From Bacilli bacterium (GTDB lineage Bacteria; Bacillota_I; Bacilli_A; RFN20; CAG-826), in contig JAFSMX010000002.1 of the NCBI GenBank assembly GCA_017447725.1, forward strand, positions 1 to 42,151: a DNA stretch of 42,151 bases. Reading direction: 5' to 3'. The notes beneath the pieces were generated by a model. It did no database searches and was not told the origin of the DNA. It saw nothing but the letters and a program-made list of their open reading frames with translations. Positions 1,480 through 41,554 of this stretch are shown here, in pieces (positions within the stretch are counted from its first letter, which is position 1; each line of letters starts with the position of its first letter). The position numbers and the translations under genes were made by a program.

Positions 1480-1875
1480 TGGTGGAGTCGGCGGGTATCG
1501 CACCCGTGTCCACAGAAGGCCCCACAATAACGTCTACAGCTTAGACGATATTAAGTGATCTCGTATGTTCGTTGCATATCGTCTGCTTGAACAATACAAG
1601 GTTCATTGTAGTTCGACAAGGGTTAGCGAACCAACTGTCCTTATCTATCCTTTTGGTATGACACCTACTTCAAGCGTGAAAGGCTAAAACCTTGAAGGGC
1701 GCTCTGTCCGGCGTCTAACGTCGGTCCCTATGTCGGGTAGCTTAAGCTAAGCAGAGAGATTGAGCTCTTGGAGCTCTCATATAACTGTTGTCAGTTATTT
1801 TGTTTTGATGATAGCGTCATCACTCGGCTGCAGTTAATGCCAGGCAATCATCCGTGTCGAAACTATATCGACCCC
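1480..1875 (-). ncRNA. ssrA: Transfer-messenger RNA (tmRNA), one-piece
   Basis: tmRNA rescues ribosomes stalled on broken mRNAs: it enters as an alanyl-tRNA mimic and then encodes a degradation tag. The 5' end GGGGTCG pairs with CGACTCC near the 3' end to form a 7-bp acceptor stem with one G-U pair, and CCA is encoded. The T-arm reads GACACGGGTGCGATACCCGC. The resume codon is most likely GAC at position 84 of the RNA, preceded by AATAACT, which aligns with the AATAGTC seen before the resume codon of E. coli tmRNA. The tag frame (1742-1792) reads DNSYMRAPRAQSLCLA and stops at TAA. The rest folds into the pseudoknot region. About 396 nt is a normal size. The promoter and terminator are both visible. 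Confidence 0.95.
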
Positions 1876-37539: not shown

Positions 37540-38886
37540 ATGCCTGAAACAATTACTGAATTATCTAATTTATGGGCAAAGATTAAAAAACTACTCGAAG
37601 AACGCATTGGAGACCAACGTGTTTCTGATGTTTTCTTAGAAAAAACTCGTATTTATTCGTTCGAGAACGATGTGATGATCGTCGCCACAGAAACCGATTT
37701 GGCGGCAGTAATTTTGACATCAAAATACCAAAATATTGTCGATCAAACCGTAAAAGAAGTTGTTGGACGACCAGTCAAAGTGAGTTTTGCACATAGCGAA
37801 AGTTTAAAGAAAACTGCTCCTCTAGAAAAAGATGAACCTCAATTTTTCAAAAATGTGAGTATAAATCCCGCTTTAACATTTGATAACTTTGTCAGTGGAT
37901 CTTCGAACTTAGAAGCTAAACAAGCCGGAATATTTGTTGCAAATAATCTTGGCAAATCTTTCAACCCATTATTTATTTACTCTGATCCAGGTCTTGGAAA
38001 AACACATTTGCTTTATGCAATTGCGAACGAAATCAAAGACCATGATCCAAGTAAAAGATGCTTATATTGCGAAGCAAATGACTTTATTGAACAATATGTC
38101 ACATACGTTAAAGACTCAAATTCTTTATCTGCATTTATTAAGAGTTACGATGTCTTGTTAATGGATGATATTCAATATCTTGCAACTAAAGAGAAAACAT
38201 CCGAATTCTTCTTTAACATCTTCAACCACTACTTAAATCAAGGAAAACAGGTTGTTATTACAAGTGACCGCCATCCACAAGATTTAAAAGGTTTCGAAGA
38301 AAGATTAAAATCAAGATTCGTCCAAGGTTTAACCGTTTCTATTGGTCAACCAGATGTGCAAACTTGTGTAAATATTATCAAGTCAAAGATTGATAATAGC
38401 CCAATTTCTTTAGAAGCTTTTGATCCAAGGGTGATTGAATTTATCGCTGAAAAATTCTCCAAGAATATTCGTGATATCGATCAAGCTCTAAACAAATTGA
38501 TTTATTACACTTCCTACTACCGTCCAACAAAATACATTAGTTTTGAAACAGCGATGGAAGCCTTGCAATCCCTTGTGAATGTGAAGGATGCGAAAGCAAA
38601 GCTTTCCGAGCAAAGAATCATTTCAACGGTAGCGGATTATTACAATTTAATGCCTTCCCAATTAACCGGTCCAAGTCGTCAAGCAGATATCGCACTTGCT
38701 CGCCATATTGCAATGTATCTCATCCGAGTGATGCTTGATACGCCATTTACAAAAATTGGTTACTTGTTTGGAGGCAAGGATCACTCAACTGTGATGAATG
38801 GTGTAACAAAAGTGGAAAAAACCTTGAAAACTAACACTGCTCTACAACAGGCTGTAAATGAGATTAAAGCCAATCTAAAAGCTTAA
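37540..38886 (+). CDS. dnaA: Chromosomal replication initiator DnaA
   Basis: 448 residues. An N-terminal helicase-loading domain (ITELSNLWAKIKKLLEERIGDQ), a short linker, the AAA+ domain (Walker A SDPGLGKTHLLYAIA, about 148-162; Walker B VLLMDDIQYL; ERLKSRF sensor region), and a C-terminal helix-turn-helix with the DnaA signature GGKDHSTVMNGVTKVEK. It opens oriC and loads the helicase. CGAGGA lies 11 nt before the ATG. DnaA boxes flank the gene on both sides. Confidence 0.98.
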   Translation: MPETITELSNLWAKIKKLLEERIGDQRVSDVFLEKTRIYSFENDVMIVATETDLAAVILTSKYQNIVDQTVKEVVGRPVKVSFAHSESLKKTAPLEKDEPQFFKNVSINPALTFDNFVSGSSNLEAKQAGIFVANNLGKSFNPLFIYSDPGLGKTHLLYAIANEIKDHDPSKRCLYCEANDFIEQYVTYVKDSNSLSAFIKSYDVLLMDDIQYLATKEKTSEFFFNIFNHYLNQGKQVVITSDRHPQDLKGFEERLKSRFVQGLTVSIGQPDVQTCVNIIKSKIDNSPISLEAFDPRVIEFIAEKFSKNIRDIDQALNKLIYYTSYYRPTKYISFETAMEALQSLVNVKDAKAKLSEQRIISTVADYYNLMPSQLTGPSRQADIALARHIAMYLIRVMLDTPFTKIGYLFGGKDHSTVMNGVTKVEKTLKTNTALQQAVNEIKANLKA

Positions 38887-39028: not shown

Positions 39029-40147
39029 ATGCGTTGCGTAATTGAAAAAGAACAATTTATTAAAGGATTAACAATGGTTAGTAAAGCCATTCCACAAAAA
39101 GCTGAACTACCAATTCTTTCCAATGTGAAATTAGATTTATGTGAAAAAGGATTAGTTTTAATCGGATCAGATAACAACATTATCATTTCCACAGTTGTGC
39201 CTTACATGATTGATGAAAAAGAAATCATCCGTAATGCTCAATTTGGTGAAACTTGTGTCCAATGTAAACTAGTTCTTGAAGTTGTTCGCCACATGGAAGA
39301 CGAATACATTACACTTGAACTCGTTGATAACTCAATTTTAAAAATTGAAGACTCTAAAGCAAACTTCAAATTAAATTCTATCCGTGGTGATGAATACCCA
39401 CAAATTGACCTCACTGTCTCAAACGGCTTTATCGAGGTCAAAGCAAACGACATCAGGGATTTAGTCGACCAAACATCTTTCGCGGCTTCTATGAAGGAAA
39501 CAAGGCCGATTTTGACCGCAATTAACTTTGACGCCGAGGGCGGAAAACTCACTGCCACAGCAACCGACACTGCTCGTCTTGCTCGTAAGTCAGTTGCGAT
39601 CGATTCTGATGCTCATTTCGTGGCGAATATTCCAGCCAAAAAGATGGTTGATATTGTCCGCAGTTTTGAGAATGAAGAATTTGTAAGTGTCGCTGTAAGC
39701 GACAATAAAGCCATTTTTAAGTTCGGTTGAACCACAATTTCGACCCGCTTAATCAATGGCGAATATCCAAACACAAAACACATCGTTCCAAAGACTTTCA
39801 ATTACTTCCTGGAAGTTAATGCTCGTGAGTTCTTGTCCTCGATGGAACGTGTCTCTCTTTTAAGCGCTGATCATGATGGTGTTATTAAGCTCATTCTTGA
39901 TGAAGACGAAGCTGAAATGATTTCTCGTAGTTCATTAGTTGGTTCCGCGAATGAAAAACTCTCCATGTTTAAGTTCTCTGGAGATCACCTCGAAATCAGT
40001 TTCCGCGCTTCATTTGTTGCCGATGCGATTCGTGCAAACAAATCTGAGGATGTGACAATTGCCTTTATCGGCGAAATGAAGCCATTTGTTGTTAGAAACG
40101 ACAAAGATGACTCCATCGATATGTTAGTCACTCCATTACGTGCTTAA
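39029..40147 (+). CDS. dnaN: DNA polymerase III beta clamp, interrupted by an in-frame TGA
   Basis: The reading frame is 373 codons including the stop, the normal clamp length, but codon 234 (39728-39730) is TGA. The frame is the same on both sides, so this is one base change and not an indel. Before it: the clamp start MRCVIEKEQFIKGLTMVSKAIPQKAELPILSNV, the FAASMKETRPILTAINF region of domain 2 and DNKAIFKFG. After it: TTISTRLINGEYPNTKHIVP and the end of domain 3, SIDMLVTPLRA. AAGGAG lies 7 nt before the ATG. The clamp tethers polymerase III to DNA and is essential. Readthrough, recoding as Trp or a sequence error (Ser TCA to TGA fits family members I recall) are the options. A TTG or ATG at 39833 or 39842 could start a C-terminal piece, but no ribosome site supports it. 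Confidence 0.9.
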
Positions 40148-40259: not shown

Positions 40260-40484
40260 ATGAAACAAAAAAGGGTTCCAATTTCGATTAAAACCGAATA
40301 CATCACACTTGGTCAATTTTTAAAGTTTGCTGATGTGGTTAGTTCTGGTAGTGATGCGAAATTCTATCTCTCGACTCATGAGATCTTAGTCAATAAGGAA
40401 CCTGATCATCGTCGTGGTCGTAAACTAAGACCAGGTGACGAGTTAGAAATCGAAAATGTTGTTTACGAAATAATCTCCAAATGA
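40260..40484 (+). CDS. yaaA: S4-domain RNA-binding protein YaaA (RlbA)
   Basis: 74 residues. ISIKTEYITLGQFLKFADVVSSGSDAKFYLSTHEILVNKEPDHRRGRKLRPGDELEI is the small S4 domain found between dnaN and recF in Firmicutes; it binds RNA, probably in ribosome assembly. No strong Shine-Dalgarno precedes the ATG. It ends in TGA, overlapping the recF start by 4 nt. Confidence 0.94.
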   Translation: MKQKRVPISIKTEYITLGQFLKFADVVSSGSDAKFYLSTHEILVNKEPDHRRGRKLRPGDELEIENVVYEIISK

Positions 40485-41554
40485 TTGTTTCTAAGTTAAC
40501 TCTTCGGAATTTCCGGAACTACGATCACGTTGAACTTGTCTTTTCCCCAAAGTTAAACGTCATCGTCGGAGATAACGCAGAAGGTAAGACAAATATTGTT
40601 GAAGCCATCTATTATCTGTCGTTAGCTCGGTCGTTCAGGACATCAGAAATCAATGATTTGATAAAGGAAAGGCGCCAATTTGCCACGATTGAGGCGGTAG
40701 TGGACAATCTCACCACTCGTAAAGAAATCGTTGCTCTAATGACCTCTTCCAGTAAGAAAGTTTCCTGCAATGGGAAACAAGTGAGACGGATTTCTGATCT
40801 ATCAAAACTAATTAATGTCATCGTCTTTGAACCAAAAGACGCACTGATGTTCCATGATTCACCTTTGGTGAGAAGGAATTATCTCGACATTAACCTCTCT
40901 AAGAAATCCCCTGTTTACTTGGAGAACCTCATTGAGTTTGAAAAACTTCTTAAGGAACGTAATTCCATTCTGAAAGGAGAAGAAATTGACAAAATCCATC
41001 TCGATGTTGTCACTAAAAAACTAATTGAGGTTGAAGAACAAATCGTCCGTTATCGTCTAGCTTATATTTCTGAGATTAATAAAATTCTCTCAAAAATTGT
41101 AAAAGCCGTAAAAGGTGACGATGACGAGGCAGTCTTGAATTATAATCCATTCATAAGAATGGATGAAAAATTCTCACAGGCGTGTGCGCGTGCGTACGAA
41201 AAAAACCTGGAAAGCGATATTAAACATAAAGCGACCCAGATTGGTATCCATCGTGAAGACTTCTCACTTAGTCTTAATGGAAAAGACATCGCCACACACG
41301 GCTCCCAAGGCGAAAACCGATTAGTCGTTATCGCCTTAAAACTCGCTCCATACTTCTTAATTGAAGATGAAGGCGAGAAACCAATCGTTGTCCTTGATGA
41401 CGCATTAAGTGAACTGGATTATATCCACAGACAACGATTGATTATATTTGTTGCGAAAATGAACCAAGTCTTCATTACCGCAACAGAATTAAATGTATCT
41501 AACGCTACGATATTCGTAGTCAATCATCAAAATATTACAAGGAGGAATACTTAA
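40481..41554 (+). CDS. recF: DNA replication and repair protein RecF
   Basis: 357 residues. [19 protein letters not shown] is the classic start. Walker [20 protein letters not shown] (about 30-48), ABC signature SQGENRL (SQGQQR in most homologs) and Walker [14 protein letters not shown] are visible. With RecO and RecR it loads RecA at gaps. The ATG overlaps the yaaA stop (ATGA); the TAA overlaps the gyrB ATG by one base. Confidence 0.97.

What the first reader, a model, noticed from the sequence alone, without database searches (positions are those of the whole stretch)
39728..39730. In-frame TGA in the middle of dnaN
The clamp gene is otherwise a perfect 373-codon frame, with conserved sequence on both sides of codon 234 (DNKAIFKFG before, TTISTRLINGEYPN after). 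A nonsense codon in an essential gene must be an error, be read through, or be decoded as an amino acid. All other Trp codons in the window's genes are TGG, and no other gene contains an internal TGA, so full reassignment to Trp looks unlikely. A substitution from TCA (Ser) or TGG (Trp) is the simplest source. If real, it would be a rare case of a split or recoded beta clamp.
Basis: partly seen in the sequence, partly recalled or inferred. Interest (0 to 1): 0.75.

Follow-up and report, generated by a model that had tools for sequence, protein, structure and literature searches.

The report
Lone stop codon in clamp gene
The DNA-clamp gene of this uncultured bacterium carries one stop codon where its four closest relatives have an arginine codon; the organism reads TGA as an ordinary stop, so this is most likely a one-base error or rare variant in a metagenome assembly rather than a new genetic code or a split clamp.

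Summary
In detail: dnaN (window 39029-40147, 372 codons plus stop) has an in-frame TGA at codon 234 (39728-39730), and it is the only dnaN in the genome. The proposed sources (TCA or TGG) are wrong. The four closest relatives (dnaN protein 92-99% identical) all have AGA (Arg), and most of the genus has Asn, so the change is a single A>T. TGA is not reassigned: at 857 positions where the closest relative has Trp, this genome has TGG at 855 and TGA at none; about 12% of long ORFs end in TGA; RF2 is intact behind a CTTTGAC frameshift site; no UCA-anticodon tRNA was found. The nonsense load is not TGA-specific: 332 proteins show one TGA, one TAG and one TAA. A split clamp fits poorly, because the stop lies inside domain II and no ATG, GTG or TTG start precedes domain III. 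Best explanation: a consensus error or rare strain variant in a MAG. Main rival: a real, very recent nonsense mutation tolerated by leaky UGA readthrough, with one unexpected support: nearly all tRNA-Trp(CCA) genes of this genus have a 4-bp anticodon stem, most with A24, features linked to UGA decoding. Raw reads would settle it; none were available.

The parts
39029..40147 (+). dnaN (beta sliding clamp), 372 aa plus TAA when read through TGA codon 234
   Evidence: Pfam domains on the read-through protein; single copy in genome; solved clamps matched, best 4TR6 at E 4.6e-59
39728..39730 (+). in-frame TGA, codon 234; AGA (Arg) in the four closest relatives
39029..39730 (+). 233-aa product if TGA terminates: domain I and most of domain II, without the last ~15 residues of domain II and all of domain III
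39833..40147 (+). first downstream ATG/GTG/TTG-initiated in-frame ORF (TTG, 104 aa); it starts about 18 residues inside domain III, so it is a poor candidate for a separate domain III protein
37540..38886 (+). dnaA, intact, upstream neighbour in the usual origin gene order
   Evidence: open frame; named from sequence and position
40260..40484 (+). small S4-domain-like (YaaA-type) gene that itself ends in TGA overlapping the recF start: TGA used as an ordinary stop next door
   Evidence: name from position and established gene order
40481..41554 (+). recF, intact
   Evidence: open frame; named from sequence and position

Best explanation
The TGA is a single-base A>T difference (AGA Arg to TGA) private to this metagenome-assembled genome. 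It most likely does not represent the dominant living sequence: it is either a consensus error of the assembly or a rare, short-lived strain variant picked up in it. The organism reads UGA as a normal stop through RF2 and makes an ordinary 372-aa clamp with Arg at a variable site in domain II. Shown: the codon, the ancestral AGA, the absence of UGA reassignment, and strong constraint on both halves of the gene. Inferred: that the base is wrong or rare in the population.
For: All four nearest relatives have AGA, and no other dnaN listed in an order-wide search (roughly 150 genomes) carries an internal stop. Differences after the TGA are all synonymous against G018 (20 codons) and 53 synonymous to 2 non-synonymous against G023, so the 3' half has been under selection until now. 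There is one dnaN copy only. Isolated stops of other types occur in the same assembly: AAG>TAG in a 699-aa molybdopterin-binding xanthine-dehydrogenase-like protein, intact in the other relatives that have it, and TAA near the end of an aminotransferase; in all one TGA, one TAG and one TAA in 124,981 aligned codons. TGA is a stop genome-wide. dnaN is essential in studied bacteria (established knowledge), so a fixed truncation inside domain II would not be expected. The contig ends about 2 kb downstream.
Against: There is no direct evidence of an error, because no reads were available. This assembly shows no general excess of odd changes: radical private changes number 24, against 25 in the closest relative, with the same base-change spectrum. 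Frameshifts are rare. So the assembly is generally clean, and a real mutation cannot be excluded.
Confidence: 0.62

Rival explanations
1. The TGA is a real, very recent nonsense mutation. Enough full-length clamp is made by near-cognate decoding of UGA by tRNA-Trp(CCA), which would put Trp at a site where relatives tolerate Arg, Asn, Lys, Gly or Ala.
For: Codon 234 is variable among relatives. 20 of 21 recovered tRNA-Trp genes of the genus, including this genome's, have a mismatched 27-43 pair (4-bp anticodon stem), mostly A27/C43, most also with A24 and C9. An E. coli tRNA-Trp with unpaired A27 raised UGA readthrough about 2.5-fold when overexpressed (PMC13092985), and about 6% UGA readthrough is cited for a B. 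subtilis reporter (PMC7918605). In-frame stops in conserved bacterial genes are reported as widespread and short-lived (PMC7918605).
Against: The tRNA is shared by relatives that keep AGA. In-frame stops in this genome are not biased to TGA (1 TGA, 1 TAG, 1 TAA), as leaky UGA would predict, though the numbers are tiny. No stimulating structure follows: fold z-score 0.11. RF2 is intact and conserved.
Confidence: 0.32
2. UGA is reassigned to an amino acid in this genome (Trp, Arg or other).
For: The frame stays open on both sides; the unusual tRNA-Trp could read UGA.
Against: 855 TGG and 0 TGA at 857 positions where G018 has Trp; 72 of 622 long ORFs end in TGA; no UCA-anticodon tRNA found; intact RF2 at 478.7 bits with SPF and GGQ motifs and a CTTTGAC frameshift site; no relative examined has Trp at the site.
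Confidence: 0.01
3. A split clamp: a 233-aa N-terminal part and a separately started C-terminal part assemble together.
For: Clamp domains repeat one fold, so a split between domains is conceivable (established knowledge).
Against: The stop lies about 15 residues before the end of domain II (137-248), not at the 249-250 junction. The first ATG/GTG/TTG downstream in frame is a TTG at codon 269, inside domain III (251-371). There is no promoter-like site. No relative is split there.
Confidence: 0.02
4. The gene is a decaying pseudogene.
For: It holds a premature stop.
Against: It is the only dnaN in a genome estimated 94% complete, with almost only synonymous change over the whole length.
Confidence: 0.03

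Closest known systems
Bacterial beta sliding clamp DnaN (best solved match PDB 4TR6)
   Same: Full length, all three domains, canonical dnaA-dnaN-(S4)-recF neighbourhood
   Different: One in-frame TGA at codon 234; the aligned residue in 4TR6 is Asn
Short-lived in-frame stop codons in conserved bacterial genes (PMC7918605)
   Same: Single stop, gene under purifying selection, private to one genome
   Different: Essential single-copy replication gene; one MAG only, so error is not excluded
4-bp anticodon-stem tRNA-Trp(CCA) (PMC13092985)
   Same: Mismatch at 27-43, 7-base anticodon loop, with A24 and C9 as in the paper's largest class of such tRNAs
   Different: Standard genetic code in this genome; any link to the dnaN TGA is untested
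UGA=Trp codes of Mycoplasmatales/Entomoplasmatales (NCBI table 4)
   Same: Small genome of a Firmicutes-type bacterium with an in-frame TGA
   Different: RF2 present, no UCA tRNA found, no TGA at positions where relatives have Trp

Membership tests
DnaN beta sliding clamp | Three Pfam clamp domains in one frame | tested here: met
   PF00712, PF02767 and PF02768 all above cut-off on the read-through protein
DnaN beta sliding clamp | Uninterrupted reading frame | tested here: not met
   TGA at codon 234; the relatives listed are uninterrupted
UGA-reassigned genetic code | TGA at positions where relatives have Trp (or another constant residue) | tested here: not met
   0 of 857
UGA-reassigned genetic code | Loss or degeneration of RF2 | tested here: not met
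   prfB 478.7 bits over a cut-off of 370; 97% identical to the relative's
UGA-reassigned genetic code | tRNA with UCA anticodon | tested here: not met
   None among tRNAs found on the fetched contig stretches, which cover nearly the whole assembly; genome 94% complete, so absence is not absolute
Leaky UGA readthrough | tRNA-Trp with features that raise UGA decoding | tested here: met
   A27/C43 mismatch, A24 and C9; effect known from other systems only
Leaky UGA readthrough | Excess of TGA over TAG/TAA among internal stops | tested here: inconclusive
   1 TGA, 1 TAG, 1 TAA; numbers too small
Leaky UGA readthrough | Full-length protein made from the TGA-bearing message | not testable with these tools
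   Needs proteomics or a reporter
Assembly error or rare variant | Reads disagree with T at 39728 | not testable with these tools
   No reads held

The most novel reading that the evidence does not exclude
Probability: 0.12. Interest if true: 0.6.

Novelty: not a real feature. Interest (0 to 1): 0.2.

Why it matters
If the TGA were real and read through, it would be a natural case of an essential replication protein depending on stop-codon readthrough, and a test case for the ambiguous-intermediate model of codon reassignment. As it stands it is a caution: a lone in-frame stop in a metagenome-assembled genome, with RF2 present and relatives carrying a sense codon, is not evidence of recoding. 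The tRNA-Trp anomaly of this genus is the part worth keeping.

Tried and rejected
(1) Trp or Ser as the ancestral residue: rejected, AGA in the four nearest relatives, Asn in most others of the genus. (2) Genome-wide UGA reassignment: rejected. (3) A systematic A>T error signature: the dnaN and 699-aa-protein nonsense changes are both A>T, but private A>T and radical changes are no commoner here than in the closest relative, so not supported. (4) High assembly error load shown by frameshifts: only one junction in 352 queries, so not supported. (5) First-pass stop counts with short ORFs contained spurious and antisense ORFs with changes at every third base; replaced by a non-overlapping set of ORFs of 150 aa or more. 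(6) Stops near N-termini against G023 are likely start-site overextension and were not counted as nonsense. (7) The only other internal stop seen in an essential gene, in rpoC of a more distant relative (G212), lies next to an alignment gap and looks like an indel or assembly artefact. (8) Readthrough-stimulating structure: none. (9) Internal promoter for a split gene: none. (11) A literature search for MAG assembly errors and premature stops returned nothing.

Full report
Observation. The codon is there. Window 39728-39730 reads TGA in the frame of dnaN, which starts at ATG 39029. Read through, the frame gives 372 residues and ends with TAA at 40147, and it holds all three clamp domains. It is the only locus with a clamp N-terminal domain in the assembly, 896,635 bases in 39 contigs, estimated 94% complete. 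The nearest solved clamp is 4TR6, where the aligned residue is Asn.

What the codon was. Among same-genus genomes, the four whose DnaN is 92-99% identical (G018, G021, G023, G005; the matching named records are MAGs of uncultured 'Bacillales' bacteria) all have AGA. Most other genus members have AAC or AAT; more distant ones have Gly, Lys, Ala, Asn or Arg. The change is therefore one A>T substitution on this genome's own branch, and the site is variable. Against G018, dnaN has 43 codon differences; besides the TGA only one, N215T, changes the protein. All 20 differences after codon 234 are synonymous. Against G023 the 3' part shows 53 synonymous and 2 non-synonymous differences. Both halves have been under strong selection, so the stop is extremely recent or not real.

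Does this organism read TGA as an amino acid? No. Across 332 proteins (124,981 codons) aligned from G018, this genome has TGG at 855 of 857 Trp positions and TGA at none. Of 622 long ORFs, 72 end in TGA; one gene with a TGA stop lies next to dnaN, its TGA overlapping the recF start. RF2 is intact: prfB scores 478.7 bits against a cut-off of 370, is 97% identical to the relative's over 346 residues, keeps the SPF and GGQ motifs, and is preceded by a CTTTGAC site at L070:6226, the form of the classical RF2 programmed frameshift (the function of that site is established knowledge), which makes sense only if RF2 terminates at UGA. No tRNA with a UCA anticodon was found.

Is TGA special among the internal stops? 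No. The same comparison gives three internal stops: TGA in dnaN, TAG (from AAG) in a 699-aa xanthine-dehydrogenase-like protein, and TAA at codon 361 of a 379-aa aminotransferase. The TAG is absent from the other relatives that carry that gene. In the reverse direction, G018 has none. Order-wide, no other listed dnaN holds a stop. Among family rpoC genes one of about 126 genomes shows a TGA, beside an alignment gap. Isolated stops in such assemblies are therefore rare but not unknown. The base-change spectrum and the number of radical changes are the same as in G018, so I found no sign of a systematic error in this assembly.

A possible readthrough route. The single tRNA-Trp(CCA) found in this genome has an A27/C43 mismatch at the top of the anticodon stem, leaving 4 pairs, plus A24 and C9 (positions assigned by me from the cloverleaf, as the automatic partition used a variable loop one base too long). 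A mismatch at 27-43 occurs in 20 of 21 recovered genus copies, A27/C43 in most. In E. coli, overexpressed tRNA-Trp with unpaired A27 raised UGA readthrough about 2.5-fold; the same paper finds 4-bp-stem forms as the only tRNA-Trp in about 6.5% of standard-code genomes (PMC13092985). So leaky UGA is plausible in this genus, but the feature is shared by relatives without the TGA and does not show as an excess of TGA stops here. No stimulating RNA structure follows the codon.

Split clamp. The stop is about 15 residues before the end of domain II; the first ATG, GTG or TTG in frame afterwards is a TTG at codon 269, inside domain III. No promoter-like site is present. A two-piece clamp is unlikely.

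Verdict. Most likely a consensus error or rare strain variant in a metagenome-assembled genome (0.62), next a real recent nonsense mutation tolerated by leaky UGA decoding (0.32). Reassignment is about 0.01. The split between error and real variant rests on the essentiality of dnaN and the absence of reads; it is a judgement, not a measurement.

Noticed in passing
G000:C19:25219-25292 (locus L191, 1501-1574): tRNA-Trp(CCA) with A27/C43 mismatch (4-bp anticodon stem), A24 and C9; a 27-43 mismatch is found in 20 of 21 copies recovered from the genus. It predicts raised UGA near-cognate decoding and deserves its own test.
   Followed up: partly
L069:10121 (G000:C30): In-frame TAG (AAG in relatives) at codon 521 of a 699-aa molybdopterin-binding, xanthine-dehydrogenase-like protein, 97-99% identical to intact relatives.
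   Followed up: partly
L055:4073 (G000:C16): In-frame TAA at codon 361 of a 379-aa class-V aminotransferase, a short C-terminal truncation.
   Followed up: no
L070:6226 (G000:C31): prfB has the CTTTGAC programmed +1 frameshift site before an intact RF2 frame.
   Followed up: yes
window 1480-1875 (-): tmRNA with an unusual predicted tag, DNSYMRAPRAQSLCLA, not ending in the common LAA; G018 has the same tag and G023 DNSYMRAPRAQAVCFA.
   Followed up: partly
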